DNA of 64,000 nt from NCBI GenBank assembly GCA_022841745.1, contig JALHQW010000033.1, positions 1-64,000 of the forward strand, written 5' to 3'. The DNA is from Saprospiraceae bacterium. Lineage in GTDB: Bacteria; Bacteroidota; Bacteroidia; Chitinophagales; Saprospiraceae. The position numbers and the translations under genes are program-made. The notes below the pieces were generated by a model. The model was not told the origin of the DNA. It did no database searches and saw only the letters and a program-made list of their open reading frames with translations. Of the stretch, positions 5,085 through 21,299 are shown in pieces (the stretch's first letter is position 1; each line of letters starts with the position of its first letter).

Positions 5085-5876
5085 TTATTTCTTCACTGCT
5101 CCCTCGACAATATACTCATACTTATACCCTGCCCCGAAGTCCTTATCCACAGCCAGCACACCTTCCAGGGTAATGGTCTCCCCTACTTTCGCCAGTTCGG
5201 TGGTGGTCAGTGTGAGGTCGAGGTTATTGCCGGAGCCGTCTTGCAGGTGAACCCAGTTGCGGCCCATAATCATGTTGTTAACCTTCATCACCTTGCCCGT
5301 CACTTTTACCGTCTTGCCATTGTATTTGCTGAGGTTGGCCACGAGGTCAGCGATTTTGATGGCACCTGCGGCAGCGGCCACATTGGTCGGAGGAGCTACG
5401 GTCGAGCCACTTTTAACATTAGCATGTGCCTGCTCGGCGGTCATGCTACTGGCCGCATCCGCCGCCCTGAAATCGGAGACGAGGTAAAGCGTTTCGAAGT
5501 TGCGGTTGAACTCCTTGCTCTCGAAGTTGTGCTTCAACAACCCGCCTTTGAATACGTAGGCATTGCCCAGTTTAATTTCCTGTTTTGAGGTGGCGACCCA
5601 TATTTCCTGTCCATTTTCCTTGGCCCGCACATAGGTGTATTTGTCGGTGTTCATTACCTCCTCAGCCACGATTTTATGCTCCGCAACATCGAGGTTGGGC
5701 TGGCCGGGGGCGGTGTTCACGCCGCCTTGCAGGTTGCCAGCACCGGGGTCTTGGAACAGGGGTGCGCCCTCGACCGAAGCTGCTGCGTCGGCTTCGACGA
5801 CTTCGGGGCTGGAGTTGCAGGAGAGTAGGATTACTCCAATTATTGCGAATAGTAGGAATGGCTTAGTTGTCAACAT
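5085..5876 (-). CDS. Lipoprotein with two OB-fold domains (NrfJ-like)
   Basis: A lipobox (ILLSC, Cys20) follows a short hydrophobic segment, so the 263-residue product is probably a periplasm-facing or outer-membrane lipoprotein. Residues about 65-140 (MNTDKYTYVRAKENGQEIWV, then GGLLKHNFESKEFNRNFETL) resemble the small periplasmic OB-fold proteins found near multihaem cytochromes, such as NrfJ. Residues about 165-260 form a second OB fold (VKVTGKVMKVNNMIMGRNWV followed by HLQDGSGNNLDLTLTT). These domains are often called nucleic-acid binding, but the periplasmic location argues against that; help in cytochrome or copper handling is inferred from gene context. It is the last gene on the minus-strand side of the cytochrome block and converges on the permease gene. 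Confidence 0.8.
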   Translation of the reverse strand: MLTTKPFLLFAIIGVILLSCNSSPEVVEADAAASVEGAPLFQDPGAGNLQGGVNTAPGQPNLDVAEHKIVAEEVMNTDKYTYVRAKENGQEIWVATSKQEIKLGNAYVFKGGLLKHNFESKEFNRNFETLYLVSDFRAADAASSMTAEQAHANVKSGSTVAPPTNVAAAAGAIKIADLVANLSKYNGKTVKVTGKVMKVNNMIMGRNWVHLQDGSGNNLDLTLTTTELAKVGETITLEGVLAVDKDFGAGYKYEYIVEGAVKK

Positions 5877-5914: not shown

Positions 5915-6325
5915 TTATGGATACTGGCCTAGTGCTATCAATTGTTTTCGGAAGATGACCCGTTCGACATCATTAAACTTGAAAATCCTTACAATTGCAA
6001 TTCCAATCTCAGTTTTACCATAAATGGCACCTTCTAAAAGTTCAAAGTGCTCTTCCCAAACATCTGTTCTTGGGTTAAAAAACCTGACAAATTCCTCTTC
6101 ATTGACACTATAAGAAGCTATGTCCGAACCCTTGAAAAAATTGCAATCTGGACATACATAAGCCAAGTTTTTCAGCACCGTCAATCCGTCATGCTTTAGG
6201 CTTCTGATATGGTCAACATGGAAAGTGTAAAAAGAGGATGTTTCCCTCAACAAGCAGTATTCGCAACGGTATCCTGAACGATTGGCAGCCTGCTTTTTCA
6301 AAGCGTTTGTTATACGAGAACTCAT
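5915..6325 (-). CDS. HNH endonuclease family protein
   Basis: The 136-residue product has the zinc-finger HNH arrangement: CEYC (residues 21-24), HVDH (36-39) with the metal-binding histidines, and CPDCN followed by FFKG (58-66). HNH nucleases cut DNA using one metal ion. Its start overlaps the stop of the upstream 83-residue gene by four bases (ATGA at 6322-6325), so the two are translationally coupled. The pair sits between the outer-membrane barrel gene and the OB-fold lipoprotein gene, looking like an inserted accessory unit. Its target is unknown; it could be a stand-alone selfish or defence nuclease. Confidence 0.85.
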   Translation of the reverse strand: MSSRITNALKKQAANRSGYRCEYCLLRETSSFYTFHVDHIRSLKHDGLTVLKNLAYVCPDCNFFKGSDIASYSVNEEEFVRFFNPRTDVWEEHFELLEGAIYGKTEIGIAIVRIFKFNDVERVIFRKQLIALGQYP

Positions 6326-6603: not shown

Positions 6604-8235
6604 TCAAAACCGCTGCACAATCTTCGTATTCACCCGGTGCAGGGTTTCCGCTTTTTTATCGAAGGTGCCTTCATAATAAAGGTACAGCGCCAGCTTGCGG
6701 GTCAGGTTGATGGAGAGGTCGAGGCCAATGAGTTGTTGCATCACCTCGTTTTCATAGATTTTGTAGCGGTAGTCCACCAAACGGTAATAGGCATCGGCAC
6801 TGAGCTTGCCGGGGATGATGTCCCTCGTTAGGCGAAGTCCGTACATGCGGCTGTCAAGGTAATTGGTCTGGAGGAAATTGGCGGTGAGGGATGCCTGCGC
6901 ACCAATCCATGGCAGGCGGGTGAAGTTCAGGTAGCTATTCAGGTTCTTCGACTCATTGAGGCCGCTCTTCTGGAAGCGCCAGTTGGCGTTTGCTCCCCAA
7001 GTCACCCATTTGAATGGGCGGTAGTTGACGTTGAAGCGCAGGCCCTGCCTCGTCTCGTTGTCAATCAATTGTTCGAGTTGGTTCTTGTAGCTCTCGTAGT
7101 AGATGGTGTTCTTGCGGTTGTCGTAGCCGAGCGAGACGCTTGTTTTCTGCGAGACCTTATAGCGCAACGTGAGCAGCATATTGGTCAGGCTGGGTTTGGT
7201 GCTGGCCTCCCCGTTCAGTTTTTCGTAGAGGTCCACCTCCATTGAGCCAAAAAAGCCCAGGTTCTTCGCCAAGTTGTTCGAGTGCTGGAAATAAACGAAG
7301 CGGCGGTCGGTCGCCCCACCGTTGCGCTGCTCCACGAAGGCAAGGGTACTCTGCTGCTGCCTGCCTTCCTTCTGCGTGGCGTGGCCGATATAGATGCCCG
7401 CTTGCAGTAGTTTTAATTCAACCCCATAATCCAGGAAATTGGGCCTCGAACCCGCAATGCCACCCACCATGAAATTGCCGAAACCCTTCTCCGCCTGCAA
7501 GCCATCCACCGCCCCCATACTCGAAATGCGCTGGTTGATTTTTCGCCCAAAACTGATGCTGGAGGTCTTGTCGAGGTCGTATTTCACCGAAAGCGCAAAG
7601 ATTTTGAGGGCCTCGAAAACATTGTCCTGCACCGCTTGCCACTCGCCCACCGTGTGCCGGAAGGTGATGTAATTGTCCGTCGAAAAACGGCTGTTGCCAA
7701 GGTTGTTGCCTTGCAAGGTGAAGGCATAGCGCATCCGGTGGGTCGTCTCCTCGCCAAAAATATTGGTATAGCTGGCCGCCGACAGCCGCCCTTTTATTTT
7801 TTGCTTAAACTCAATGGCCACTGGTTTCTCTTCCGTTTCCGGCGTCTGGATGGTGGTCGGTTCAATGGGCCGCAGGCTGTCCTGCTCTGACTTTGGCGCT
7901 TCATTGTTGACCTCCGGCTTGGGCTTCGGCAAGTTTTCCCGAAGCGGCACCCTCGCCAAAAACTCAGCGCCAACCTGCACTTTTTCTGTGAGCAACGAAG
8001 TGCATACACATGAGGTCGAGGACTTGTCCTTCACCACGAGACAGGGCGTCAACAGCTCGTTTTTTTGGGAAAAAAGCGTGTCGCCCTTGGCAATGTCCTC
8101 CGTGCTGGCAAACTTGACATAGACGTTTTGCGAGGACACATAGGAGGCCGTGCCCTTTAGGAGCGTGGTTTGTTGCTGCGCAAAAACCGTCATGCAGCAA
8201 GCAACGAAAAAGGATATGACAACTGTTTTTTTCAC
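6604..8235 (-). CDS. Outer-membrane beta-barrel protein linked to cytochromes
   Basis: The 543-residue product has a signal peptide (MKKTVVISFFVACCMTVFAQ). An N-terminal module (about residues 25-95, KGTASYVSSQNVYVKFASTE and DIAKGDTLFSQK) looks SH3- or barrel-like. A proline- and glutamate-rich linker follows (about 95-145, LPKPKPEVNNEAPKSEQ). From about 150 to the end, alternating strands such as KGRLSAASYTNIFGEETTHR and LSLGYDNRKNTIYYE alternate with turns, and the chain ends in Phe (KIVQRF), as in outer-membrane barrels. It is the next gene downstream of the giant cytochrome on the same strand, which suggests an outer-membrane partner. I see no similarity I could name to MtrB, so the porin-cytochrome role is inference. 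Confidence 0.7.
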   Translation of the reverse strand: MKKTVVISFFVACCMTVFAQQQTTLLKGTASYVSSQNVYVKFASTEDIAKGDTLFSQKNELLTPCLVVKDKSSTSCVCTSLLTEKVQVGAEFLARVPLRENLPKPKPEVNNEAPKSEQDSLRPIEPTTIQTPETEEKPVAIEFKQKIKGRLSAASYTNIFGEETTHRMRYAFTLQGNNLGNSRFSTDNYITFRHTVGEWQAVQDNVFEALKIFALSVKYDLDKTSSISFGRKINQRISSMGAVDGLQAEKGFGNFMVGGIAGSRPNFLDYGVELKLLQAGIYIGHATQKEGRQQQSTLAFVEQRNGGATDRRFVYFQHSNNLAKNLGFFGSMEVDLYEKLNGEASTKPSLTNMLLTLRYKVSQKTSVSLGYDNRKNTIYYESYKNQLEQLIDNETRQGLRFNVNYRPFKWVTWGANANWRFQKSGLNESKNLNSYLNFTRLPWIGAQASLTANFLQTNYLDSRMYGLRLTRDIIPGKLSADAYYRLVDYRYKIYENEVMQQLIGLDLSINLTRKLALYLYYEGTFDKKAETLHRVNTKIVQRF

Positions 8236-8656: not shown

Positions 8657-11600
8657 TTAATCTTCCCCCGTCGGGTGGCAACTATAACAAGCCGCACTAT
8701 TGTACTGATACCCGCCAACCCCTTGGTGCCTATCCGCCAAGTCCACCGGGTCATCGTGCTCATGGCAGTCAATGCAACTGAACTGCGAGTAGTTGCCCCC
8801 GATATGGCATTCCACGCAAGTGTTCCATTCCCCTTCGTGCCGCCCGCTGAAAATCGGGAAATATTGATTGTCGTGGTCCCAAGTGGAGGGCGTCCAAGCG
8901 CTTTCGGTATGGCAATTCTGGCAGGTAGTCGGGAAGCCCGCCTGCTGGTGGTTGGGATTGTTGGCCCCATTGTATTCGGCTTGGTGGCAGCCCACGCAAG
9001 CGGTCGGCGTGTTGTTGTAGTTGCCGTTGTGGCACTCGGCGCATTGGTTGGCAATCGCTGCGTGGGCGCCGTTCAGCGGCCAGTATTGGTTGTGGATGGG
9101 GAAGGTCGCAGGGTTCCAATCGGGGTCGGTCGTGTGGCACATGGCGCAGTCGGTCGGGATGGCGAGGGCCGTGTGGTTGGGGTTCGTGCTGCTGTTGTAA
9201 TCCGGTTGGTGGCAGCCCACGCAGGTGTTCGGCGTGTTGTTGTAATTGCCGCCCACATGGCACTCAGCGCATTGGTTCGCAATCGGTACGTGTGCCCCGG
9301 TCATTGGCCAGATGGCATTGTGGTCGAAAGTGGATGGCGACCAAGCCGTCTGTGAATGGCAGTCCTGGCAGGTCGTCGGGAACTGGTTCGAGACGTGGTT
9401 CGGGTTCGCCGCACCATTGTAATCCGGTAGGTGACAGCCCACGCAGGTATTCGGCGTATTGTTGTAGTTGCCGTTGTGACACTCGGCGCATTGGTTGGCT
9501 ATTGCAACGTGAGCGCCAGCCAACACATAATATTGGTCGTGAATGGGGAAGGTCGCTGGCTGCCAATCGGGGGCCGTCGTATGGCAAAGCTCACAGTTCG
9601 TCGGGATGGCCAGCGCCCCGTGGTTCGGGTTCGTGCTCGTGTTGTAGTCCGGTTGGTGGCAGCCTTGGCAAGTGGTCGGCGTGTTGCTGTAGTTGCCGCC
9701 CACATGGCATTCGGCGCATTGGTTGGCAATCGGGATATGCGCCCCCGTCAGTGGCCAAACCGTGTTGTGGTTAAACGTGGAAGGTGCCCAAGCCGATTGC
9801 GAGTGGCAGTCCTGGCAGGTCGTCGGGAACTGGTTCGAGACGTGGTTCGGGTTCGTAGCCCCGTTGTAATCCGGCAGGTGGCAGCCCACGCAGGTATTCG
9901 GCGTGTTGTTGTAATTGCCGTTGTGGCACTCGGCACATTGGTTCGCTATTGAAGCGTGAGCGCCAGCCAGAATATAATATTGGTCGTGAATGGGGAAGGT
10001 CGCTGGCTGCCAATCGGGGGCGGTCGTATGGCAAAGCTCGCAATTCGTCGGTATCCCCAACACCTCGTGGTCGGGGTTCACGCTGGCGTTGTAATCGGGC
10101 GTATGGCAGCCAGCGCAGGTGTTCGGCGTGTTGTTGTAATTGCCGTTGTGACATGCTGCGCAATCGTTCGCAATTGGCGTATGTGCCCCCGTCAGCGGGT
10201 AAAATTGGTTGTGTATCGCAAAGGTCGCAGGTGCCCAGCCCGGTGCGGTCGTATGGCAGCTTGCGCAATCCGTGGGGAAGTTCAGCACCTCGTGGTCGGG
10301 GTTGGCCGAGCCTTGGAAGTCGGGCATGTGGCAGGCATCACAATTGGTCGGCGTGTTCTGGTAACCCGCAGCATGGCAGTCCACACAGTCGGCGGTCAGG
10401 TGACCTCCGGTCAATGGCCAGACCGAGTTGTGGTTGAAGCCGTCTCCCTCTCCGTTCGGGTGGCAGGCCAAGCAAGCCGGGCTGTTGTACTGGTAGCCGT
10501 TCACGCCAACGTGGTCGTTGTTCGTCTCCGGGTTCGCATGGCAGGTCGTGCAGGTGAACACCGCAAAATTGTTCGGGTTCGTATGGCAATCCACGCAGGC
10601 ATCCCATTCGCCCTCGTGCGCCCCGGAGTAAATCGGGAAGTACTGTGCATCGTGGTCGAAGGTCGAAGGCACCCAGGCCGTCTCCGAGTGACAGGTTGTA
10701 CAGTCCGTCGAGAAGCCCGCCAGCTGGTGGTTCGGGTTCGTAGTGCCGTTAAAGTCCGCTATGTGGCAGGCGTAGCAGGTGTTCGGCGTGTTGTTGTAGT
10801 TCCCGTTGTGGCAGGTGGCGCACTGGTTCGCAATCGTTGCGTGAGCACCGTTCAATGGGTAAAACTGGTTGTGTATCGGGAAGGTCGCTGGCTGCCAATC
10901 CGGGGCGGTTGTGTGGCACATCGCACAGTCGTTGGGCAGGGCCAAGGCCACGTGGTTCGGGTTTTGGCTTTGGTTGAAATTGGGCGTGTGGCAGCCCGCA
11001 CAGGTGTTGGGCGTGGTCGAGTAATTGCCGCCTAGGTGACATTCCACGCAATCATTCGCTATCGGAACGTGCGCCCCGGTTATCGGCCAGACCGAGTTGT
11101 GGTTGAAGGTCGAAGGCACCCAAGTGGTTTCACCATGACACACCGTGCAGTCGTTGGGGAACTGGTTGGCCACGTGGTTCGGGTCGGCTGCCCCATTGAA
11201 GTCCGGTGCGTGACAACCGATGCAAGTGTTCGGTGTCGAGTTGTAGTTGCCGTTGTGGCACTCGGCGCATTGGTTCGCAATTGCTGCGTGGGCACCGTTC
11301 AGCGGGTGAAACTGGTTATGAATCGCAAAGCTCGCAGGTGCCCATCCCGGCGCCGTCGTGTGGCAGCTTGCGCAATCATTTGACAGGCCAAGCACCCCGT
11401 GGTTCGGGTTCGTCGAGCCATTGTAGTCGGCTTGGTGGCAAGCTGCGCAATCCGACGACGTTCCTTGGAAATTGCCCCCTATATGGCATTCAAAACACTC
11501 CGCAGTCACGTGCGCCCCCGTCAGCGGCCAAACGGTACTGTGGTCAAACACGTTCGTCGCATCACCCGTCGGGTGGCAAGCGAGGCAAGCCTGGTTGTTG

Positions 11601-14600
11601 TAGGTATAGCCCGGCACGCCATTGTGGTCGTTGTTCGTCTCCGGGTTTTGGTGGCAGGTCGTGCAGACCACCTCGGCATAGTTCCCCGGGTTCGAGTGGC
11701 AGTCAATGCACTGGTTCCATTCGCCGTTGTGCGCCCCTGAGTAAATCGGGAAATACTGCGCATCGTGGTTGAAATTGGCGGGCACCCAAACGCTCTCGCC
11801 GTGGCAAGTCGCACAGTCCGTCGGGAACTGCGCCGCCTGGTGCGGTGGGTTCGCCGTGGCGTTGTAGTCCGCTGTATGACAAGCGAAGCAGGTGTTCGGC
11901 GTGTTCACGTAGTTCCCGTTGTGGCAAGTGGCGCACTGGTTCGCAATCGTTGCGTGAGCACCATTCAACGGATAAAAATCATTGTGAATCGGGAAGGCCG
12001 CAGGTTCCCAATCGGGGGCAGTAGTATGACACATCGCACAGTCCGTCGGCAGGCCGAGCGCCATGTGGTTGGGGTTTGCGCTCTGCGCAAAATCGGCTTG
12101 GTGGCAGCCCGCACAGTCCGTGGGCGTGGTCGTGTAGTTCCCGCCGATATGGCATTGCACACATTCGTTTGCTACCGCAATATGCGCCCCGGTAAATGGC
12201 CACACATTATTATGATTGAACGTGGATGGAATCCAAGCGCTCTCGCTATGGCAGGTCGTGCAGTCGTTGGGGAACTGGTTCACCACGTGATTCGGGTCAG
12301 CCGCCCCGTTGAAATCGGGCGTATGACAGCCCATGCAGGTGTTTGGCGTATTGTTGTAGTTGCCGTTGTGGCAAGTGGCGCAGTCGTTCGCCACCGTTGC
12401 GTGAGCGCCGTTCAATGGATAAAACTGGTTGTGGATGCCGAAACTCGCAGGTGACCAATCCGGCTGCGTGGTGTGGCACTGGGCGCAGTCCATCGGCAGG
12501 TTGAGCATCACGTGGCTGGGGTTCATCGAGCCATTGAAAGCGGTGGCATGGCAGCTTGCGCAATCCGTTGACGTGCCTTGGAAAACGCCCCCAACATGGC
12601 AGTCGAGGCACTCCGTCGTCGTGTGCGCCCCGGTCAGCGGCCAGACGGTATTATGGTCGAAAATATTGTCCGCATCGCCCGTTGGGTGGCAGGCGAGGCA
12701 AGCGTTGCTTTCATAGACGTAGCCGCCGACGCCAGCATGCTCATCGTTCGTTTCCGGGTTGGCGTGGCAGGTCGTGCAGGTGAACTGCCCGTAGTCGCCG
12801 GGCACGTTGTGGCAGTCCGTGCAGGCGTTCCACTCGCCCTGGTGCGCCCCACTGTAAATCGGGAAATGCTGTGCATCGTGGTCGAAAGTGGCGGGCGACC
12901 AAGCGCTTTCCGAGTGGCATTCCGTGCAGTCCTGCGAGAACTGGAGTTGCTGGTGGTTTGGGTTGGTTGTGGCGTTGTAGTCCGCTTGGTGGCAAGCGAA
13001 ACAGGTGTTCGGCGTGTTGTTGTAGTCCCCGTTGTGGCAAGTGGCGCACTGGTTGGCAATCGTTGCGTGAGCACCATTTAATGGATAAAAATCATTGTGC
13101 AACGGGAAGGCCGCAGGCTCCCAATCAGGGGCGGTCGTGTGGCATATTGCACAATCATTGGGCAAGTTCAGCGCCGTGTGGTTGGGGTTTGCGCTTTGCG
13201 CAAAATCGGATTGATGGCAGCCCGCACAGTCCGTGGGCGTGGTCGAGTAGTTGCCGCCGATATGGCATTGCGCACATTCGTTTGCTACCGCAATATGGCT
13301 CCCGGTAAATGGCCAAACCGAGTTGTGGTCAAAGGTCGAGGGCACCCAGGCCGTCTCTGAGTGGCAGGTCGTGCAGTCGTCGGGGAACTGGTTCGCCACG
13401 TGGTTAGGGTCTGCCACGGCGTTGAAGTCTGAGGTATGGCAGCCGATGCAGGTATTCGGGGTATTCACGTAGTTCCCGTTGTGACAGGAGGCGCAGTCGT
13501 TCGCAATCGTTGCGTGAGCGCCGTTCAGTACATAAAAATCATTGTGGTTGTCAAACCTCGCAGGTGCCCAGCCGGGGTCGGTAGTATGGCAGCTTGCGCA
13601 ATCGTTCGAAAGGCCAAGCGCCCCGTGGTTTGGGTTGGCCGTTTGGTTAAAATCGGTGGTGTGGCAGCTTGCGCAATCGGTGGGTGTGCCGGTGTAGTTC
13701 CCTCCGGGATGACAAAAAGTGCAGTCCGTCGTAAGGTGCGCCCCGGTCAGCGGGAAGTCCGTCGAATTATGGTCAAAAGCCCCGTCCGCCTCGCCCGTCG
13801 GGTGGCAAGCAAGACATGCCGAATTTTCATAGACATAGCCCACCACGCCCCCGTGCTCATCGTCCGTTTCGGGGTTGATATGGCAAATGGTGCAACTGTT
13901 CACGGCGTAGTTGTTCGGGTCGGTATGGCACTCCGTGCAACTGTTCCAGACGCCTTGGTGCTTGCCGCTGTAAATCGGGAAATGTTGCGCATCGTGCGCC
14001 AGGTACTGCGCTGGCTGCCAATCGGGGTCGGTGGTGTGGCACTGGGCGCAGTCGTTGGTGAAGCCAGCCTGCACGTGGTTCGGGTTTTGCGCAGCATCGA
14101 AATCGGGCTGGTGGCAGGCGGCGCATTGGTTCGGTGTATTGGCGAAATCGCCCCCCGCATGGCAGGCGGCACAGTCATTGATTTGGTGACCTTTGGTCAA
14201 TGGGAAGAAGGAGTGGTCAACTTTGTCCGTGTTCCAACCAGCGGTGTTAGGGTCGTGGCATTCGAGGCAGTTGGTTGAGAAGCCCGCTTGGGAATGGTTG
14301 GGGTTGGTGGTCTGGTTGAACTCGTCCGTGTGGCAGTTCCTGCACTCGTTGCCGATGCGGTCGAAGCGCAGGGCCGACTCGTTGGGCACCATGCCATTGG
14401 TGATCGTGTGGCATTCCTCGCAGCTCACCGCCGAGTGCGCCCCGATGAGCGGGAAGCCATTGTCGAAGTGGAGTTGGGAGACGTTGTCCACGAGCCAGTG
14501 GTTCGTCGAGTGGCAGCGGGCACAGTCGTTGCCGACGGTTTGTTGGTGGATGTCCTGGTGGCAGGCGTTGCAGTCGGCCTTGGTGTTTTCGAACACCAGT

Positions 14601-14887
14601 TTATCGTGGCAGTCCCGGCAGTCCACGTTTGCGTGGCGGCCCGTGAGCGGGAAATCCGTCTTGTTGTGGTGGAATTTGCTGGTATCAACGGGCAGGAGCA
14701 TCCCGGTCGTCTTGGACTTGGTCGGCTTATGGAGTTCGATGCCCGACCAGTAATCCTTTGCAATCGCCCAGCCCGCCGGTGAGTGGCAGGAGGCACAGTC
14801 CAATTTGAGGGCTGCGCCGTGCGGGTTTTGCGCAAGCAAACAATGCGCAAGGCCCATGAGCAAGATGATGGTCCAAAACCTGTACAC
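8657..14887 (-). CDS. Giant multihaem cytochrome c (82 CxxCH motifs)
   Basis: The 2076-residue product begins with a signal peptide (MYRFWTIILLMGLAHCLLAQ) and otherwise consists almost wholly of cytochrome-c3-like repeats. I count 82 CxxCH haem-binding motifs by hand. Two repeat types alternate. One is of the form GAHATIANQCATCHNGNY followed by NTPNTCxxCH and PNHxxxQFPxDCTTCH. The other starts HDAQYFPIYSGAH and carries CTTCH, NPETN and CLACHPTG, ending in FDHxxVWPLTGAH. Many extra histidines (GAH, PNH, FDH) can be distal ligands, giving bis-His haems. It has no T9SS tail, membrane anchor or enzyme domain, so it most likely acts as a long electron wire in the periplasm or on the surface. The frame is intact over 6.2 kb. 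It is flanked by a barrel gene and a 23-haem gene. Confidence 0.95.
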   Translation of the reverse strand: MYRFWTIILLMGLAHCLLAQNPHGAALKLDCASCHSPAGWAIAKDYWSGIELHKPTKSKTTGMLLPVDTSKFHHNKTDFPLTGRHANVDCRDCHDKLVFENTKADCNACHQDIHQQTVGNDCARCHSTNHWLVDNVSQLHFDNGFPLIGAHSAVSCEECHTITNGMVPNESALRFDRIGNECRNCHTDEFNQTTNPNHSQAGFSTNCLECHDPNTAGWNTDKVDHSFFPLTKGHQINDCAACHAGGDFANTPNQCAACHQPDFDAAQNPNHVQAGFTNDCAQCHTTDPDWQPAQYLAHDAQHFPIYSGKHQGVWNSCTECHTDPNNYAVNSCTICHINPETDDEHGGVVGYVYENSACLACHPTGEADGAFDHNSTDFPLTGAHLTTDCTFCHPGGNYTGTPTDCASCHTTDFNQTANPNHGALGLSNDCASCHTTDPGWAPARFDNHNDFYVLNGAHATIANDCASCHNGNYVNTPNTCIGCHTSDFNAVADPNHVANQFPDDCTTCHSETAWVPSTFDHNSVWPFTGSHIAVANECAQCHIGGNYSTTPTDCAGCHQSDFAQSANPNHTALNLPNDCAICHTTAPDWEPAAFPLHNDFYPLNGAHATIANQCATCHNGDYNNTPNTCFACHQADYNATTNPNHQQLQFSQDCTECHSESAWSPATFDHDAQHFPIYSGAHQGEWNACTDCHNVPGDYGQFTCTTCHANPETNDEHAGVGGYVYESNACLACHPTGDADNIFDHNTVWPLTGAHTTTECLDCHVGGVFQGTSTDCASCHATAFNGSMNPSHVMLNLPMDCAQCHTTQPDWSPASFGIHNQFYPLNGAHATVANDCATCHNGNYNNTPNTCMGCHTPDFNGAADPNHVVNQFPNDCTTCHSESAWIPSTFNHNNVWPFTGAHIAVANECVQCHIGGNYTTTPTDCAGCHQADFAQSANPNHMALGLPTDCAMCHTTAPDWEPAAFPIHNDFYPLNGAHATIANQCATCHNGNYVNTPNTCFACHTADYNATANPPHQAAQFPTDCATCHGESVWVPANFNHDAQYFPIYSGAHNGEWNQCIDCHSNPGNYAEVVCTTCHQNPETNNDHNGVPGYTYNNQACLACHPTGDATNVFDHSTVWPLTGAHVTAECFECHIGGNFQGTSSDCAACHQADYNGSTNPNHGVLGLSNDCASCHTTAPGWAPASFAIHNQFHPLNGAHAAIANQCAECHNGNYNSTPNTCIGCHAPDFNGAADPNHVANQFPNDCTVCHGETTWVPSTFNHNSVWPITGAHVPIANDCVECHLGGNYSTTPNTCAGCHTPNFNQSQNPNHVALALPNDCAMCHTTAPDWQPATFPIHNQFYPLNGAHATIANQCATCHNGNYNNTPNTCYACHIADFNGTTNPNHQLAGFSTDCTTCHSETAWVPSTFDHDAQYFPIYSGAHEGEWDACVDCHTNPNNFAVFTCTTCHANPETNNDHVGVNGYQYNSPACLACHPNGEGDGFNHNSVWPLTGGHLTADCVDCHAAGYQNTPTNCDACHMPDFQGSANPDHEVLNFPTDCASCHTTAPGWAPATFAIHNQFYPLTGAHTPIANDCAACHNGNYNNTPNTCAGCHTPDYNASVNPDHEVLGIPTNCELCHTTAPDWQPATFPIHDQYYILAGAHASIANQCAECHNGNYNNTPNTCVGCHLPDYNGATNPNHVSNQFPTTCQDCHSQSAWAPSTFNHNTVWPLTGAHIPIANQCAECHVGGNYSNTPTTCQGCHQPDYNTSTNPNHGALAIPTNCELCHTTAPDWQPATFPIHDQYYVLAGAHVAIANQCAECHNGNYNNTPNTCVGCHLPDYNGAANPNHVSNQFPTTCQDCHSQTAWSPSTFDHNAIWPMTGAHVPIANQCAECHVGGNYNNTPNTCVGCHQPDYNSSTNPNHTALAIPTDCAMCHTTDPDWNPATFPIHNQYWPLNGAHAAIANQCAECHNGNYNNTPTACVGCHQAEYNGANNPNHQQAGFPTTCQNCHTESAWTPSTWDHDNQYFPIFSGRHEGEWNTCVECHIGGNYSQFSCIDCHEHDDPVDLADRHQGVGGYQYNSAACYSCHPTGED

Positions 14888-15095: not shown

Positions 15096-16250
15096 ATGCA
15101 ATCTAACCTTATTAACCGCCAAAAAGATATTGAAACCATCAGAGACCTGTTGGAGGTATTCCCTGTGACCGCCATATTGGGGCCAAGGCAAGTTGGTAAA
15201 ACCACCCTATCCAAAGCGTTTGAACCCAATTTTGTTTTTGACCTTGAGAACCCAAGAGACTTGGCAATGATGGAAAACCCTCAGCTTACATTGGAAAAGT
15301 TAGAAGGGCTTATCGTCATTGACGAAGTACAACGAAAACCAGAACTTTTCCCATTACTTCGCTATCTGGTTGACACACACCAAAGCCAGCGCTATTTGAT
15401 TCTTGGGAGCGCATCTTCCAGTCTTAAGCAACAGAGCGGCGAATCGCTTGCTGGTCGTATTGGCTACCATTATCTCACCGGCATCAACCTGGGCGAATTA
15501 GGCAAGCAAAGTATGGACACCCTTTGGCTAAGGGGTGGTTTTCCCCGTTCTTTGCTCGCCCAAGATGACAATAAGAGTATGTTGTGGCGAAGTAATTTTG
15601 TCTCCACCTTCCTCGAACGAGACCTTGCCATTTTGGGCAGTAATGTGCCATCCACTGTCATGTACCGTTTTTGGTTGATGCTGAGCCATTATCACGGTCA
15701 AACCCTTAACTATAGTGAACTGGCTCGTTCATTCGGCGTTAGCGACAAGACTGTAAAAACCTATATTTCTATTCTTGAGGACACATTTATGTTGCGCCAA
15801 CTCATGCCTTGGCATGCCAACCTTGGTAAACGATTGGTAAAAAGCCCGAAATTATACATAAGAGACAGTGGCATTTACCACGCCCTCCAACATATTGAGA
15901 CCATGCAACAGTTGCGAACAAGTCCTCTTGTTGGAGCATCATGGGAAGGTTTTGCGCTGGAAGAAGTAGTGTCTTTTCTGTCAAAAAGGGAAAATGAAGT
16001 GTTCTTTTATGGCTCTCATGCAGGTACTGAGTTGGACTTGCTCTGGCATGAAATGGGGAAGGTATTTGGGGTAGAGTTCAAGTACATGGATGCTCCAAAA
16101 TTGACCAGGTCTATGCACGAAGCCATTTCCGATTTACAGTTACATCACCTTTGGGTCATTTACCCTGGTGACAAAGCTTATCCACTTTCCGAACAAGTGA
16201 CCGTTTTACCACTTTGGGAACTCCAAAAAATGCAGGAACAGTTTAGCTAA
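15096..16250 (+). CDS. AAA ATPase with DUF4143 domain
   Basis: The 384-residue protein has Walker A GPRQVGKT (residues 29-36), Walker B LIVIDEVQ (about 73-80), a sensor-like YLILGSAS, a winged-helix-like segment (ELARSFGVSDKTVKTYISIL, about 210-230) and a C-terminal DUF4143 region with a nuclease-like ending (AGTELDLLWHEMGKVFGVEF and K). Such ATPases are common, scattered and mobile among bacteria and archaea, with no settled function. It sits alone on the plus strand between the two cytochrome genes, preceded by an inverted repeat. Its stop lies two bases from the stop of the 23-haem gene, which suggests insertion into the cytochrome block. Confidence 0.9.
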   Translation: MQSNLINRQKDIETIRDLLEVFPVTAILGPRQVGKTTLSKAFEPNFVFDLENPRDLAMMENPQLTLEKLEGLIVIDEVQRKPELFPLLRYLVDTHQSQRYLILGSASSSLKQQSGESLAGRIGYHYLTGINLGELGKQSMDTLWLRGGFPRSLLAQDDNKSMLWRSNFVSTFLERDLAILGSNVPSTVMYRFWLMLSHYHGQTLNYSELARSFGVSDKTVKTYISILEDTFMLRQLMPWHANLGKRLVKSPKLYIRDSGIYHALQHIETMQQLRTSPLVGASWEGFALEEVVSFLSKRENEVFFYGSHAGTELDLLWHEMGKVFGVEFKYMDAPKLTRSMHEAISDLQLHHLWVIYPGDKAYPLSEQVTVLPLWELQKMQEQFS

Positions 16251-16252
16251 AT

Positions 16253-18211
16253 TCATTTGTGGCAGTCCACGCACTCAAAACGCTCCATACGGTACATCAC
16301 TACCATTTCCCCAGCCTTTTCCTTCGGCAAATGGCATTTCTCGCAAGCCGTCGCCGCATGTTTTCCCTCCAATTTAAACCTCGTCTTATCATGGTCAAAC
16401 CCGGTCACCGTCCAACCTTCGAAACCATGGCAGCGGGCACAGTCTGTCACACCATCCCCTTTAGGGGGCAGGGGGTTGGCGAACTGGCTGCCGTGGCTAT
16501 GGTCGTGACAGTCGGCGCAGGTATTGGGTAGGCCAGCGAAACTGCGTTTGGGCGGCTCGTCGTCGCTCAAGTGGCAGGCCCGGCAGTCCACTGCCTGGTG
16601 CTTGCCTTGTAGCTGGAACTTCGTCTTCGAATGGTCGAAGCGCCCGCTGATGACCGACCAAGACTCGGTGAGGTGGCAGGTCTGGCAGTCTTGGTTGGGA
16701 TACCAAGTGGCGGCAATTTCATTTCCCTTCCTGTGTATATCCTCATGGCAGTCCACGCAGCGCTCGCCGATGTTGCGGAAGCGCCATGTTGATGACTCAC
16801 CACCAACGCTGGCAGGGTTCTGAACCCTGCTAGCGCTTTCGACATGGCAGGCAAAACAAGGTGTCGCCACGTGTGCCCCATCCAACGGGAAGCGGGTCAG
16901 CGCATGTTGTTCGAGGCTGAAAGTGCTGCCCGCAAAGCCATCAGTGGTGTGACAAGTGGCGCAGTCAGGCGGCGCTCCCCCTTTAGGCGGCTGCGGGCCA
17001 TCCCCTTTAGGGGGTAGGGGGGTAAACTGCCCTTCGTGGAAATCTGAGTGGCAGGCAGCGCAGGTATTGTGCGGCAGCGGGTCGGTAAAGCTGCTGCTGG
17101 TATGGCATTTCTTGCAGTCCACGGCGGCGTGCTTGCCCTCCAACTCGAAGCCCGTTTGGGCATGGTTGAAGTCGTCGAGGTTGCCGACGGCCACTTTCGT
17201 GAACGAACTCTCGGAGTGGCAGCCAGCGCAATCCGTGCCGAACTTGCCCTCGTGCGGGTCTTTGTGGCAGGTGGCGCATTCGTAGGTTTTCACCCCCAGC
17301 CTGTCCTGAAAAACATTGGTCGGCGTGGCGCTGGCCATGCTGTGGCATTGGGCGCAGTCCACCGATTTGTGTTTGCCTTTTAGCGGGAAATTGGTCTTGC
17401 CGTGGTTGAACTTGCCGAGGCTGCTGGTATTGGCAAACGACTGCTCGTTGTGGCATTGCTTGCAGTCATTGCCAAGGTGGCTGCGGTGCGGGTCGTCGTG
17501 GCAGGCGTTGCAGTTTTTGAAGGCGATGCCTGTGAATTGCTGGAATTCCTTGCCGTTTTTCACCGCTACCTTGTGGCAATCCTTGCACTCAACGCTTTTG
17601 TGCTTGCCCAAGAGTACGAAGTTGGCCTTGTCGTGGTTGAACTTGGTGGCAGGCTTGAAATCGTCCATACCGTGGCACTTGGCGCATTCGTTCGGGAGGG
17701 TCTTTTGGTGGTAGTCGGTGTGGCAGTCGAGGCATTGCTGACCGAGGCCGAGGTAGGTTTCTTTGCGTTTTTTAAGGTTCACATCTGCCACGTAATCGGG
17801 CTTATGGCATTTCCGACAGTCAACTTTTGCGTGGGCGCCTTCCAGCTTGTAGCCAGCGAGGTTGTGGTCGAATTTTTTCTCATCAAAACGCACCATTTCG
17901 AACTTGCGCCCGTGGTGGTCGCTGTGGCAGGTGGCACAGTCCTTTCCCCGCCCGTCCTTGGAGGCGTGGTAGCCCCGTTTTTTGTCAATGAGGCTTTTGA
18001 TTTCCTTGTGGCAGGCGAGGCATTTATCGTTCGAGACCTTGTCGCCGAGCACGTGGCACTGGGTGCAGTTGGTCATGCCCTCCAACTTGGCGTGTGGGGT
18101 GGCGAGGTCGCCGGGGGAGAGTTGGGCGGAGAGCCTGCTGGCGAGCAGTACAAATAGAGCGATTTGAAAAAGTCGTTTTAAGTCAATTTTAGGGTATTGC
18201 CTTGTTGACAT
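16253..18211 (-). CDS. 23-haem cytochrome c3-family protein
   Basis: From the ATG at 18211 (MSTRQYPKIDLKRLFQIALF) the product is 652 residues with a signal peptide ending near SAQ; longer upstream starts are not supported. I count 23 CxxCH motifs by hand. Repeats have the form FNHxKxNFxLxGKHKSVDCxxCH, typical of cytochrome c3/c7-like periplasmic wires, and histidines such as GKH and FNH can be distal ligands. Three short peptides look inserted: PLPPKGDG (twice, one followed by PQPPKGG) and SRVQNPASVGGE. These are translations of palindromic repeats listed separately. The gene is transcribed toward the giant cytochrome gene, with the DUF4143 ATPase gene lying between them on the other strand. 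Confidence 0.93.
   Translation of the reverse strand: MSTRQYPKIDLKRLFQIALFVLLASRLSAQLSPGDLATPHAKLEGMTNCTQCHVLGDKVSNDKCLACHKEIKSLIDKKRGYHASKDGRGKDCATCHSDHHGRKFEMVRFDEKKFDHNLAGYKLEGAHAKVDCRKCHKPDYVADVNLKKRKETYLGLGQQCLDCHTDYHQKTLPNECAKCHGMDDFKPATKFNHDKANFVLLGKHKSVECKDCHKVAVKNGKEFQQFTGIAFKNCNACHDDPHRSHLGNDCKQCHNEQSFANTSSLGKFNHGKTNFPLKGKHKSVDCAQCHSMASATPTNVFQDRLGVKTYECATCHKDPHEGKFGTDCAGCHSESSFTKVAVGNLDDFNHAQTGFELEGKHAAVDCKKCHTSSSFTDPLPHNTCAACHSDFHEGQFTPLPPKGDGPQPPKGGAPPDCATCHTTDGFAGSTFSLEQHALTRFPLDGAHVATPCFACHVESASRVQNPASVGGESSTWRFRNIGERCVDCHEDIHRKGNEIAATWYPNQDCQTCHLTESWSVISGRFDHSKTKFQLQGKHQAVDCRACHLSDDEPPKRSFAGLPNTCADCHDHSHGSQFANPLPPKGDGVTDCARCHGFEGWTVTGFDHDKTRFKLEGKHAATACEKCHLPKEKAGEMVVMYRMERFECVDCHK
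16455..16475. repeat. CCCCTTTAGGGG element inside the 23-haem gene
   Basis: A short palindrome CCCCTTTAGGGG followed by a G-run is read in frame as PLPPKGDG between two haem motifs. Related copies are at 16975-17022 and, inside dnaE, at 53835-53857. Confidence 0.75.
16807..16834. repeat. CAGGGTT palindrome inside the 23-haem gene
   Basis: GGCAGGGTT and AACCCTGC flank a CTG loop. It is read in frame as RVQNPASVG. A more perfect copy with longer arms stands at 35808-35840 in intergenic DNA. Confidence 0.7.
16975..17022. repeat. Two tandem CCCCTTTAGGGG-type elements inside the 23-haem gene
   Basis: Two copies in a row (16975-16995, degenerate, and 17000-17022) encode PLPPKGDGPQPPKGG between a DFHEGQF and a CATCH segment. 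The frame is kept open, so the cytochrome tolerates the inserted linker. Confidence 0.75.
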
Positions 18212-18266
18212 ATCAAGAAGGATTGGTTGGAAAAAATGATTTAAATTTGTTTTCAAAATTAGAATC

Positions 18267-18542
18267 ATGGCGGCTACTGCTGAAAATAAATTGCTTTCTT
18301 GGGATGAAATCAAAAAACGCCATCCTGACGAGTGGGTCGTTTTGGGCGAACCTACTTGGGATGGTATTACGCTTCTAAGCGGTATTGTGATTTCGCACCA
18401 TCCTGACAAGCGAGTCGCTAGCATCGAAGGTGGGGAACACCGGAAAGAATATAAAATGGTTACGCTCCGATTCACAGGTAAAGCTAAGCCTGTCCGCACA
18501 ATTGGTTACATGCGCACCATTAACCCTATTAAACCCTCATGA
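18267..18542 (+). CDS. Small conserved partner of retropepsin-like gene
   Basis: This 91-residue soluble protein (MAATAENKLLSWDEIKKRHP, then DEWVVLGEPTWDG and a basic end) has no signal peptide. It overlaps the next gene by four bases (ATGA at 18539-18542), so the two are coupled. I recall such a small protein preceding retropepsin-like genes in cyanobacteria and Bacteroidota, with no known function. It is divergent from the 23-haem gene with about 55 bases between starts, and the pair is oriented against the surrounding cytochrome block. Confidence 0.75.
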   Translation: MAATAENKLLSWDEIKKRHPDEWVVLGEPTWDGITLLSGIVISHHPDKRVASIEGGEHRKEYKMVTLRFTGKAKPVRTIGYMRTINPIKPS

Positions 18543-18944: not shown

Positions 18945-20351
18945 CTAACGATGCTTCTTCATCGTAAACCCAAACCGCTTCGTAATTTGTATGCCCACTT
19001 TCTCCAAGAACTGCGTGGGCAGCTCACCGCCGGCAAATATGTAAACAAGGTCGTTCTCCACCGCCTGCCTGCCGCCGTTTTCCTCCAGCGCCAGTTCAAC
19101 GAGTTCGTTGTCAATATTGACCAAGTTCGATTTCAGCTTCAGGTCCACTTTGCCGTCTTGCATGGCTGACTCCAGCCGCTCCCGGTTCTTGGGCTTCACC
19201 CTTGCGAAGGCATCGCCACGGTAGCTGAGTATGACGGAGTTCTGCTGGGCCAACGAAACAGCCGCTTCGATGGCCGAGTCGCCGCCGCCCACCACGACCA
19301 CTTTCTTGCCGCTGATGTTCTCCGGTTCGAGCAAGCGGTAGGCCACTTTTTCGAGGCTCTCGCCCGGTACGCCGAGCTTGCGGGGGCTGCCCCGTCGGCC
19401 AATGGCCAATAGCACGGTCTTGGTCACAAACTCCTCGCCCCGGTTGGTGTGTACATAGAAAACATCGCCATCAATCTGGATGCCCTGCACCCTTGTATTT
19501 TGCTGGATGGATGGTGCGTCCCGCATCTGCTGGCTGCTCTTTATGCCCTCCACCTTCGTGTGCTCACGGATGCTGATACCGTTTTTCGACAGGGCATCGT
19601 TCCAGATGGCGAGCAGTTCCGCCTTGCTGGTATCGAACAGTTTTATCTTGCCATAAAGCGGCAAATCCACGGGCGAGGTCATCACAATCTTGGAGCGGGG
19701 GAAATTGGCGACCGTGCCGCCGAGCGAGTCCTGCTCCAAGGTCAGGAAGTTCAGTCCGTGCTTCTTGGCTGTTAGCGAAGCAGAAATGCCTGCAGGGCCA
19801 GCGCCGATGATGATGATATCGTAGGTGCTTGCCCCTGTGGGGCTGCCACCCCGTTTGTTGAGCGCCTTGGCAATGGCGTTCACGGCGGCCTCGCCCTGTT
19901 CTATGCTGTTTTTGATGAGGCCCATGCCGCCCAGTTCGCCAGCGATATAAACCCCTTGGATGTTCGATTCATATTCCGTGGAAACATGCGGCAGGTCAAC
20001 GCCCCGCTTCTCGGTGCCGATGACCAACGATATGGCCTCCACCGGACAGGCATGGAAGCAAGCACCGTGGCCCACGCATTCGGCGGCATTGACGAGGGTG
20101 GCCCGACCGTTTACGATGCCGATGATGTCTTTTTCTGGGCAAGCTTCCAGGCAGGCCCCGCTCTTGATGCAGGTGCCAAGGTCAATGACCGGGTGCAGCG
20201 ACACCGGCTCGAACACTCCTTCCTCTTTCGCCTTTTCAATTTTGGCGACCGTGGCCTGCGTGGTCTTCTTCTGTTTCCTCAAATAAAACCAGATGACCAC
20301 AAAGCACAGCAGGAAGATGCTCCCGTAAATGATGATTTGTTCTATCAACAT
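18945..20351 (-). CDS. Membrane-anchored FAD/NAD(P) oxidoreductase with Fe-S motifs
   Basis: The 468-residue protein has an N-terminal membrane segment (about 5-25), two ferredoxin-like motifs (CIKSGACLEACP and CVGHGACFHACP, about 60-115), a first nucleotide-binding fold (YDIIIIGAGPAGISASLTAK, about 175) and a second one (KVVVVGGGDSAIEAAVSL, about 340), as in thioredoxin-reductase-like flavoproteins. The usual second cysteine of each ferredoxin motif is replaced, by Ser in one and His in the other, so clusters may be of a different type or use other ligands. It likely moves electrons between NAD(P)H and a partner at the membrane. Its neighbour upstream is the cytochrome-b-like gene (75 bases) and downstream are the multihaem genes, which points to one electron-transfer chain. 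Confidence 0.88.
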   Translation of the reverse strand: MLIEQIIIYGSIFLLCFVVIWFYLRKQKKTTQATVAKIEKAKEEGVFEPVSLHPVIDLGTCIKSGACLEACPEKDIIGIVNGRATLVNAAECVGHGACFHACPVEAISLVIGTEKRGVDLPHVSTEYESNIQGVYIAGELGGMGLIKNSIEQGEAAVNAIAKALNKRGGSPTGASTYDIIIIGAGPAGISASLTAKKHGLNFLTLEQDSLGGTVANFPRSKIVMTSPVDLPLYGKIKLFDTSKAELLAIWNDALSKNGISIREHTKVEGIKSSQQMRDAPSIQQNTRVQGIQIDGDVFYVHTNRGEEFVTKTVLLAIGRRGSPRKLGVPGESLEKVAYRLLEPENISGKKVVVVGGGDSAIEAAVSLAQQNSVILSYRGDAFARVKPKNRERLESAMQDGKVDLKLKSNLVNIDNELVELALEENGGRQAVENDLVYIFAGGELPTQFLEKVGIQITKRFGFTMKKHR

Positions 20352-20363
20352 GGCTTGGTCGGT

Positions 20364-20432
20364 TTCGAATTGCGAGTTGCGAGAGGCCCCCTAGCTACTC
20401 GAAACTCGTAGCTCGGAACTCGTAGCTCAGAA
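20364..20432. repeat. Word-like repeat (AACTCGTAGCTC)
   Basis: Between the oxidoreductase and cytochrome b genes, and entering the 3' end of the latter, the sequence repeats forms of CGAAACTCGTAGCTC and GAATTGCGAGTTGCGAG. Confidence 0.5.
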
Positions 20433-21299
20433 CACCCACCTCGCCCCCATCATCAGGGTGACGACGACGTGGATGACCATGATTATCAACATGATAAGGG
20501 CAAACGGCAAATGCGCCACATGCCAGTACCTGAACAGTTTGCGCATCAGTTGCAGGCGCTCGATGCGGCGGTTGAGGGTGATTTCGTTCGAGACCAACCT
20601 GGCCACCTGCCGCACATCGGCTTTGGGCACTTCATTGGCAAACAATGCTTGCCGCACGTTGCGCAGCGTCTTTTTATCCTCAAAATATTGGTTCCACATC
20701 CTACCCAGCAACCCGCCACTCGTTGTGGATGCTTGTGCCTGTACACTTGCAGAGATTACCTGCACACTTTCCTCATTCAAGCGGTGGACGCTGTTGAGCA
20801 CCTCGCTCAAGTTGGCCTTCATGCTTTGTAGCTCCTGAAGGCTCAGTTCCCTTCCCTCAATCGTGCGGGGTATTTGCACATAGATGAAACGGCCAATGAT
20901 ACCGCTCGCCACCACTGCCACCATGCTCCAGAAGCTGACCGACACGATTCCGCCGAACTTGAACGCCGTGTGGAACAGTATCATCACCGGGCCAAGGCTG
21001 CAAAGGAAAATGTGGAACTCCAACCAGTATTTCAACCTGCCAAAACGAGTGGTCAACCAACGGAACCGCTTTTTGGCCTGGTACCCAAACACCCCTATCA
21101 GTATCAGTAAGGTGCCTACAATCCCCAGCCCATGCCCAAATACCCCGCTGGGCTTGAACCACGCATGGTCGGGGTGGTAGAACCGCTCTTCAATGGAGGT
21201 CATGTAATAAGGTATGCCCTTGACCAGCAAGAACAAAAAGGTGAGCAATACAATGCTCGCCAATGTACCGACGTAAATGCGATGAGCCAGTTGGGACAT
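20427..21299 (-). CDS. Cytochrome-b-like membrane protein
   Basis: The 290-residue protein has about five membrane segments. Histidines sit where haem b ligands would be expected: FGHGLGIVGT, LEFHIFLCSL, ILFHTAFKFGG, YWHVAHLPFA and MVIHVVV. Between the fourth and fifth segments lies a long soluble helical insert (about 155-250). The pattern fits the cytochrome b subunits that take electrons from quinol or pass them to periplasmic c-type cytochromes. It is the first gene of the minus-strand electron-transfer block and is directly followed by the FAD/Fe-S gene. The exact haem ligands cannot be fixed from sequence alone. Confidence 0.75.
   Translation of the reverse strand: MSQLAHRIYVGTLASIVLLTFLFLLVKGIPYYMTSIEERFYHPDHAWFKPSGVFGHGLGIVGTLLILIGVFGYQAKKRFRWLTTRFGRLKYWLEFHIFLCSLGPVMILFHTAFKFGGIVSVSFWSMVAVVASGIIGRFIYVQIPRTIEGRELSLQELQSMKANLSEVLNSVHRLNEESVQVISASVQAQASTTSGGLLGRMWNQYFEDKKTLRNVRQALFANEVPKADVRQVARLVSNEITLNRRIERLQLMRKLFRYWHVAHLPFALIMLIIMVIHVVVTLMMGARWVF

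What the first reader, a model, noticed from the sequence alone, without database searches (positions are those of the whole stretch)
8657..14887. A single protein with 82 CxxCH haem motifs
By hand count the 2076-residue product carries 82 CxxCH motifs in two alternating repeat types, with a signal peptide and no other domain. This is an extreme haem load for one chain and would form a very long electron wire. The repeats are still diverse, so the array is old enough to be under selection rather than a recent assembly collapse.
Basis: partly seen in the sequence, partly recalled or inferred. Interest (0 to 1): 0.93.

Follow-up and report, generated by a model that had tools for sequence, protein, structure and literature searches.

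The report
Expandable giant haem-wire protein module
A bacterium of the Saprospiraceae encodes one protein with sites for 82 haems, sitting in a conserved gene set that probably carries electrons through the cell envelope; the type is known from other bacteria, but its three-haem growth rule and near-absence of positive charge look new.

Summary
It is not isolated. It belongs to a conserved module: di-haem-b-type inner-membrane protein, FAD/Fe-S oxidoreductase, 20/23-haem cytochrome, haem array, outer-membrane barrel, lipoprotein, often the CcsBA haem lyase. The architecture matches the published "PCC3" porin-cytochrome type (He 2017, from Proteobacteria, up to 85 haems), including the inner-membrane HX13H/SGXXG motifs; common descent was not tested. 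Relatives here reach 94 haems, and Saprospiraceae haem-rich proteins were flagged in print in 2024. Not seen in the passages I read: (i) the array is an N-cap plus n three-haem modules plus a C-cap, so 98 of 101 complete arrays have 3n+1 haems (10-94); published Gallionellaceae PCC3 counts do not follow this; (ii) in about half of the arrays tested the body is almost free of Lys/Arg (window: 1571 consecutive residues), hence nearly trypsin-proof and anionic, though some relatives are not depleted; (iii) the module is one contiguous operon on a plasmid of cultured Emticicia oligotrophica DSM 17448, so it is testable. Extracellular location, haem loading and direction of flow are inferred.

The parts
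8657..14887 (-). Haem array protein, 2076 aa, 82 CxxCH
14831..14887 (-). Probable signal peptide (residues 1-19)
   Evidence: hydrophobic stretch 1-19; same distance from start to first CxxCH (residue 31) in many homologues; no cleavage prediction was run
14051..14830 (-). N-cap with haems 1-9 (residues 20-279)
   Evidence: spacing pattern: 63 of 84 complete arrays share it apart from the length class of the first gap, the window's own copy differs in one step
8924..14050 (-). Repeat body: 23 three-haem modules, haems 10-78 (residues 280-1988)
8657..8923 (-). C-cap: haems 79-82; chain ends 5 residues after the last motif, too short for a C-terminal sorting domain
8843..13555 (-). Residues 445-2015: 1571 aa without any Lys or Arg
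16253..18499 (-). 23-CxxCH cytochrome (P0002), Lys-rich; likely start at internal Met97 (nt 18211), giving 652 aa
   Evidence: 77 of 82 complete ORFs of this class (window included) have 20 or 23 motifs
6604..8235 (-). Outer-membrane beta-barrel (22 long strands by my count on the model) with small N-terminal beta domain
   Evidence: AlphaFold2 pLDDT 83.6, pTM 0.63; matches OM barrels; present in 48 of 57 loci compared
18945..20351 (-). FAD/NAD(P)H-type oxidoreductase with ferredoxin-like Fe-S domain and one hydrophobic segment (468 aa)
20427..21299 (-). Inner-membrane di-haem-b-type protein (290 aa): W92-x3-H96-x13-H110, SGIIG, W259-x3-H263-x13-H277
5085..5876 (-). Lipoprotein-like protein (263 aa; lipobox-like start read by eye), Pfam GW above cut-off
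   Evidence: relatives in 38 of 57 loci
15096..16250 (+). DUF4143/AAA_14 ATPase on the opposite strand, where several relatives carry a 13-haem cap-only paralogue; not part of the module
5915..6325 (-). HNH protein between barrel and lipoprotein; not part of the conserved module

Best explanation
The 82-haem protein is the outer, length-variable haem wire of a PCC3-type porin-cytochrome conduit. Proposed route: NAD(P)H (or quinol) -> FAD/Fe-S subunit -> two b haems of the inner-membrane protein -> 23-haem cytochrome across the periplasm -> haem array at and beyond the outer-membrane barrel -> extracellular acceptor (mineral, humic matter or partner cell). Every haem is probably bis-His ligated (2+0+1 distal His per three-haem module). 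The array lengthens or shortens in evolution by whole in-frame three-haem modules between fixed caps, so its reach is tuned in steps. In many members of this lineage Lys and Arg have been purged from the body, giving a polyanionic chain that trypsin can hardly cut. Shown: motifs, spacing, module number variation, gene linkage, purifying selection, partner motifs, barrel model. Inferred: haem loading and ligation, extracellular location, complex formation, conduction, outward direction (about 60:40 over inward).
For: 82 CxxCH with 90 further His, 2+0+1 per module; in an alignment of 66 segments, 11 of the 15 distal His of the query are at least 90% conserved. Partner families within the stretch fetched, of 57 loci (not all different genomes, some cut): barrel 48, FAD/Fe-S 41, b-type protein 39, lipoprotein 38, CcsBA 27 (one CcsBA member identified by Pfam). 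Barrel model. Both HX13H pairs in 26 of the 27 inner-membrane proteins aligned (27 of 40 ORFs of that family), the published PCC3 signature. GGGDSA invariant and GAGPxG invariant in 26 aligned oxidoreductases, YpdA/thioredoxin-reductase-like. Own genome has a near-full-length CcsBA on another contig. 98 of 101 complete arrays have 3n+1 haems. Contiguous operon in an isolate.
Against: No experiment. The array has no lipobox and no room for a type IX sorting tail, although 150 places in this genome match that tail, so its route out of the cell is unexplained. The array model (pLDDT 77.3, pTM 0.50) had no PDB fold match, and haem geometry could not be checked. The barrel matches generic OM barrels. 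The 3n+1 rule is not a property of PCC3 at large: Gallionellaceae extracellular PCC3 cytochromes have 10-18, 26, 28, 29, 33 and 35 motifs (PMC10734462) and Amphritea has 63, so common descent with PCC3 is open. Lys/Arg purging is not universal (7 of 65 arrays above 5%; Emticicia 82 K+R in 1001 aa), so it cannot be needed for the basic function. The array has a match in only 20 of 60 genomes of the near-relative set, own genome included, so the system is dispensable.
Confidence: 0.68

Rival explanations
1. Periplasmic electron reservoir (capacitor): the array stays inside, storing up to 82 electrons per chain to buffer respiration when acceptors run out, as proposed for Geobacter GSU1996.
For: No outer-membrane targeting signal is visible; monomeric three-haem-repeat proteins of Geobacter are periplasmic and proposed as capacitors (PMC10138318, passages); the 2024 sludge paper names storage as an option.
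Against: An outer-membrane barrel is the next gene after the array in most loci, and in L070 (Acidobacteria MAG, 11-kb contig) barrel and array-type cytochrome occur without a 20/23-haem gene on the contig. About 1 nm per haem (12-haem GSU1996 is titled a 12 nm protein in a reference list) would give roughly 80 nm, long for a periplasm unless it lies flat (inference).
Confidence: 0.15
2. Same conduit but inward: electrons from Fe(II), Mn(II), a cathode or a partner cell are taken up through the array to reduce the quinone or NAD(P) pool.
For: He 2017 drew PCC3 in this direction, from an extracellular donor to the quinone pool; Gallionellaceae PCC3 is discussed as an iron-oxidation route.
Against: About half of the 42 named relatives are Saprospiraceae-type or Flavobacteriia-type organisms, heterotrophs by general knowledge; an NAD(P)H-type flavoprotein fits export more simply. 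Sequence cannot decide.
Confidence: 0.13
3. Not an electron carrier: haem/iron store, metal sponge or structural surface polymer that happens to use c-type haems.
For: Strongly negative chain (net -163 by the K/R/D/E count of the presumed mature form) could bind cations.
Against: Distal His are conserved at about one per haem and the linked genes are redox proteins, which a store would not need.
Confidence: 0.03
4. Assembly or frame artefact of a shorter gene.
For: Contigs often end inside such arrays: the cytochrome gene next to the barrel was cut by the contig edge in 19 of 54 fetched pieces, so arrays are hard to assemble.
Against: Longest exact repeat 52 nt; same haem count in another MAG; single-contig genomes with arrays; plasmid record described as complete with a 40-haem array.
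Confidence: 0.01

Closest known systems
PCC3 porin-cytochrome gene cluster (He et al. 2017, PMC5566968; Gallionellaceae, PMC10734462)
   Same: Barrel + very large MHC (median 34, up to 85) + about 21-haem periplasmic MHC + ~300-aa inner-membrane protein with five TM helices, two HX13H and SGXXG; low residue:haem ratio (22-39; here 2076/82 = 25).
   Different: Described from Alpha-, Beta- and Gammaproteobacteria; here barrels and arrays together in Bacteroidota, Melioribacteraceae, Calditrichaeota and one Acidobacteria MAG, with a FAD/Fe-S subunit, a lipoprotein and often CcsBA, a 13-haem cap-only paralogue in some, and Lys/Arg-poor arrays in many. Arrays here are 3n+1; Gallionellaceae counts are not. 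The second cytochrome has 20/23 (3n+2) here, 21/24/27 there. PCC3 porins are predicted with up to 42 strands. Homology of barrel and array to proteobacterial PCC3 was not tested.
Saprospiraceae 'undescribed cytochromes' of activated sludge (PMC11495043, 2024)
   Same: Probably the same proteins (inference): many haem motifs per chain in Saprospiraceae; extracellular transfer or capacitor role suggested.
   Different: The abstract passages and section 10 that I read give counts only; no module, caps, ligand pattern, 3n+1 rule or charge feature there.
GSU1996 / c7-type 'nanowire' cytochromes of Geobacter (3OV0, 3OUE)
   Same: Tandem three-haem c7-like domains in one chain; TIGR04257 nanowire_3heme scored 45.7 for the whole protein against cut-off 40.
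   Different: 12 haems, one His-Met haem per domain, periplasmic (PMC10138318, passages); here 82 and no Met ligand pattern. A 130-residue GSU1996 stretch has 21 K+R.
MtrCAB / OmbB-OmaB-OmcB porin-cytochrome complexes
   Same: Barrel plus periplasmic and outer cytochromes in one cluster.
   Different: About 8-12 haems per chain and different porins. The array profile finds MtrF at E 4e-6 and chain 6r2q_A at 1e-5 (that this chain is MtrA is recalled, the table names it otherwise).
Burkholderiales 24- and 49-haem pair before an OmbB-like porin (PMC7399161, section 18)
   Same: Two large MHCs then a porin; the larger varies between three genomes by apparent gain/loss of CxxCH domains. For Chloroflexi MHCs the same authors suggest gains in pairs or multiples.
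   Different: No fixed caps or three-haem quantum stated in the section read.

Membership tests
PCC3 porin-cytochrome cluster | Outer-membrane beta-barrel encoded beside the MHCs | tested here: met
   AlphaFold2 barrel, pLDDT 83.6, OM-barrel matches; next gene in most loci
PCC3 porin-cytochrome cluster | Very large MHC with low residue:haem ratio (22-39) | tested here: met
   82 haems in 2076 aa, 25.3 residues per haem
PCC3 porin-cytochrome cluster | Second MHC of about 21 haems | tested here: met
   23 motifs in window; 77 of 82 complete ORFs of the class have 20 or 23
PCC3 porin-cytochrome cluster | ~300-aa inner-membrane protein, five TM, two (WX3)HX13H and SGXXG | tested here: met
   five hydrophobic segments; W92/H96/H110, SGIIG, W259/H263/H277; both HX13H in 26 of 27, both full WX3HX13H in 16 of 27
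PCC3 porin-cytochrome cluster | Sequence homology to proteobacterial PCC3 porin and MHCs | not tested
   No proteobacterial PCC3 cluster was obtained; plasmid tblastn found the barrel only in Emticicia
PCC3 porin-cytochrome cluster | Large MHC extracellular, smaller one periplasmic | not testable with these tools
   No targeting signal beyond a presumed signal peptide
GSU1996-type c7 nanowire | Tandem three-haem c7-like domains | tested here: met
   Pfam Cytochrome_C7 E 3.2e-85; TIGR04257 above cut-off
GSU1996-type c7 nanowire | One His-Met ligated haem per domain | tested here: not met
   13 Met in 2076 aa, three distal His per module
MtrB-type porin complex | MtrB-like 26-strand porin | tested here: inconclusive
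   22 strands in the model by my count; the listed fold matches name other barrels; strand number of MtrB is recalled
OmcS/OmcE/OmcZ filaments | Polymerises into filaments | not testable with these tools
   -

The most novel reading that the evidence does not exclude
The array is one covalently continuous, length-programmable wire that starts at or inside the outer-membrane barrel (a 13-haem cap-only form would just cross it) and is pushed outward in exact three-haem steps by module insertion, reaching about 80 nm or more, with a Lys/Arg-free, polyanionic, protease-resistant body. Evolution would then set the electrical reach of a cell by copy number of one module, and tryptic proteomics would have overlooked it.
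Probability: 0.3. Interest if true: 0.8.

Novelty: new variant of a known kind. Interest (0 to 1): 0.57.

Why it matters
The 2017 authors called the 85 haems of a PCC3 cytochrome the most reported in one protein, and in the passages I read no PCC3 system had a direct functional test. The finding brings the same architecture to Bacteroidota and neighbouring phyla (barrel found in 78 of 348 genomes searched in the family and 37 of 395 in the phylum, own genome included in both), gives a simple building rule (N-cap + 3n + C-cap), suggests why tryptic proteomics and fragmented assemblies could miss the protein, and names a cultured strain with the complete operon on a plasmid, so that wire length versus electron reach becomes testable.

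Tried and rejected
Fold comparison of a 15-haem array segment gave no PDB match; the model is too uncertain for haem geometry and no coordinates were at hand. phmmer of the whole array against PDB sequences found nothing at E 1e-3; the profile found the 16-haem cytochrome 1z1n at E 7e-12, MtrF at 4e-6 and 6r2q_A at 1e-5, without the three-haem register being checked. Matches of P0002 to a bacterial antigen (E 0.014 or worse) were set aside as chance in Lys-rich sequence. Lys/Arg purging as a universal rule was rejected: 33 of 65 arrays are below 0.5% in the body, 39 below 1%, but 7 are above 5%, among them L045, L132, L133 and L147 of the own or a Saprospiraceae-named group, and Emticicia is not depleted. 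The 3n+1 rule as a property of all PCC3 was rejected by the Gallionellaceae counts in print. The lead that plasmid copies of the inner-membrane protein in Proteobacteria would show PCC3 was rejected for the three records opened of eleven non-Emticicia hits: they sit with 2Fe-2S/FAD proteins and small cytochromes, no porin in PLSDB's incomplete table. Paper searches for a prior account in Saprospiraceae or Arenibacter gave one, two and no papers, of which I took only PMC11495043 as relevant.

Rows dropped: 8 of 74 candidate segments (out of register or atypical) before alignment A3; 12 of 48 barrels before alignment A2 (nine from genome-fetch loci, three atypical or cut); 13 of 40 b-type and 17 of 43 FAD/Fe-S ORFs before A4 and A5; five loci as duplicates before the neighbourhood count; of 82 barrel places, 11 were already fetched, five partial or contig-start ones were left out, and 12 more with under 3 kb upstream were not fetched, leaving 54; of the 38 other barrel places, 20 were fetched. 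In one search, 28 ORFs cut by an edge were left out of the 3n+1 count and five complete ones stayed unclassified; classes were assigned by spacing pattern. The three exceptions are L055 (29), L058 (24) and L070 (18).
Full report
WHAT IS THERE. On the minus strand, 14887 to 8657 encodes 2076 residues with 82 CxxCH and none of the longer variants searched. Of 165 cysteines 164 are in motifs; shuffling gives about one motif. There are 90 further histidines, in the pattern two, none, one per three motifs, i.e. about one distal ligand per haem; 11 of the 15 distal His of a 15-haem query segment are at least 90% conserved over 66 aligned segments. Met is rare (13), so bis-His ligation throughout is the natural reading (inference from general c-type haem chemistry).

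THE ORGANISM. Not named. Genomes placed in the same genus by the tool include one whose contig has the length and array coordinates of the MAG 'Saprospiraceae bacterium UBA6168' and one matching 'Saprospiraceae bacterium Tobar13m-G26', so the window is almost certainly from a Saprospiraceae bacterium.

BUILDING RULE. Cys-to-Cys spacings show a module of 74-75 residues with three haems, and in this gene a 15-haem super-repeat. In 63 of 84 complete arrays the first nine steps follow one pattern apart from the length class of the first gap, and in 81 of 84 the last steps follow one of three related patterns; I call these N-cap and C-cap. The 13-haem paralogues next to some giants read as caps with nothing between. 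Complete arrays therefore mostly have 13 + 3k haems (one has 10): 98 of 101 complete ORFs are 3n+1, from 10 to 94; the exceptions are 29, 24 and 18. This follows if whole modules are gained and lost in frame. Super-repeats differ between lineages (9, 12, 15 or 18 haems between markers). Against a relative of equal haem count (L036, 75% aa identity) dN is 0.18 and dS 1.05; for 14 of 26 window modules the best match in that relative exceeds the best match elsewhere in the same gene, while the other 12 are as close or closer to a paralogous module (those at haems 64 and 70 are 95% identical); with three other relatives the number is 16, 15 and 13 of 26. So: old, selected modules with some local duplication or homogenisation.

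CHARGE. Residues 445-2015 hold no Lys or Arg. In the 65 arrays long enough to test, the median Lys+Arg content of the body is 0.5%, with 33 below 0.5% and 7 above 5%; the 20/23-haem class has a median of 12%. One relative has 2043 consecutive residues without either. Counting two propionates per haem, the presumed mature window protein would carry about -327. The trait is common but not universal, also within the family, and absent in Emticicia. I cannot say why; candidates are protease resistance, binding to positively charged mineral surfaces, or avoiding Lys as a wrong ligand (which does not explain the loss of Arg).

THE MODULE. In 57 loci compared, the fetched stretch holds a barrel in 48, a FAD/Fe-S oxidoreductase in 41, a four-His membrane protein in 39, a lipoprotein-like protein in 38 and CcsBA in 27, besides the cytochromes (CcsBA named from one member). 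Two Gemmatimonadota loci (L069, L076) show no barrel. The window has the same order with two interruptions: a DUF4143 ATPase on the other strand and an HNH gene. CcsBA is on another contig of this genome. The barrel model is confident and resembles OM barrels in general. The inner-membrane protein has five hydrophobic segments and carries the two HX13H pairs and SGXXG. The oxidoreductase has invariant nucleotide-binding motifs.

DISTRIBUTION. The 42 named loci are Saprospiraceae and other Bacteroidota, Melioribacteraceae, Calditrichaeota, Gemmatimonadota, one Acidobacteria MAG and one unnamed bacterium. Array matches: 20 of 60 genomes of the near-relative set, own included. Barrel: 78 of 348 genomes of the family and 37 of 395 across the phylum, own included in both. 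Of 54 barrel-flanking pieces fetched, the nearest cytochrome gene was complete in 33, cut by the contig edge in 19 and missing in 2, which suggests that draft assemblies under-report these genes. The operon CcsA, inner-membrane protein, NAD(P)-binding protein, 23-haem, 40-haem, barrel, GW protein is contiguous on plasmid pEMTOL02 of Emticicia oligotrophica DSM 17448.

COMPARISON WITH PRINT. He et al. 2017 (PMC5566968; passages and section 15) define PCC3 by porin, large extracellular MHC (median 34, maximum 85), periplasmic MHC (median 21) and an inner-membrane protein with two WX3HX13H and SGXXG; the features testable here are met, homology was not tested. Against a simple merger, Gallionellaceae extracellular PCC3 MHCs have 10-18, 26, 28, 29, 33 and 35 motifs, not a 3n+1 series (PMC10734462, passages); these MHCs are modelled there as long and mostly linear. 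[quoted passage not shown] PMC7399161 (passages and section 18) saw apparent indels of CxxCH domains. [quoted passage not shown] PMC11475568 (passages and section 6): neighbourhoods with over a hundred motifs. PMC10138318 (passages): GSU1996 as four three-haem domains, capacitor role. PMC9473688, PMC4245776 and PMC6295460 were seen as passages. I did not see the 3n+1 rule, the cap-only paralogue, the Lys/Arg depletion or the Bacteroidota operon in what I read; my searches were made, in an open-access library only, and supplements were not open to me.

VERDICT. A real, selected, very haem-rich array that is most likely the extensible component of a Bacteroidota PCC3-type electron conduit. New variant of a known kind; function inferred.

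Noticed in passing
window 15096-16250 (+): A DUF4143/AAA_14 ATPase sits between the 23-haem gene and the array, where relatives L037, L038, L039, L045 and L079 carry a 13-haem cap-only paralogue; no 13-haem ORF was found in the window.
   Followed up: partly
window 5915-6325 (-): An HNH protein lies between barrel and lipoprotein genes that are neighbours in many relatives; a possible insertion.
   Followed up: no
window 18945-20351 (-): Both ferredoxin-like motifs lack their usual second Cys: C61-x5-C67-x3-C71 and C92-x5-C98-x3-C102 with invariant His95 at that place, which hints at an unusual Fe-S ligand (26 sequences; the standard motif is recalled).
   Followed up: no
L174 (Emticicia oligotrophica plasmid pEMTOL02): Complete seven-gene module next to parA and replication genes on a plasmid, with 23- and 40-haem cytochromes; suggests transfer between species.
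   Followed up: partly
L175, L176, L178 (Qipengyuania, Methylophaga, Alteromonas plasmids): Distant relatives of the inner-membrane protein lie between a 2Fe-2S protein and a small c-type cytochrome; L175 and L176 have metal-responsive or metal-transport genes nearby, L178 a hydrogenase set.
   Followed up: partly
L070 (Acidobacteria MAG): Array-type 18-haem gene plus barrel without 20/23-haem, FAD or b-type genes on an 11-kb contig: perhaps a minimal form. It is one of the three exceptions to 3n+1 and has a 180-residue tail.
   Followed up: no
L153, L168: The 20-haem gene looks shortened or split (16 haems; 5 and 14 haems) next to intact arrays.
   Followed up: no
own genome (G000): 150 places match the type IX sorting tail (150 of 507 candidates were scored), yet the complete arrays listed end 3-17 residues after the last motif (L070 excepted), too short for such a tail.
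   Followed up: partly
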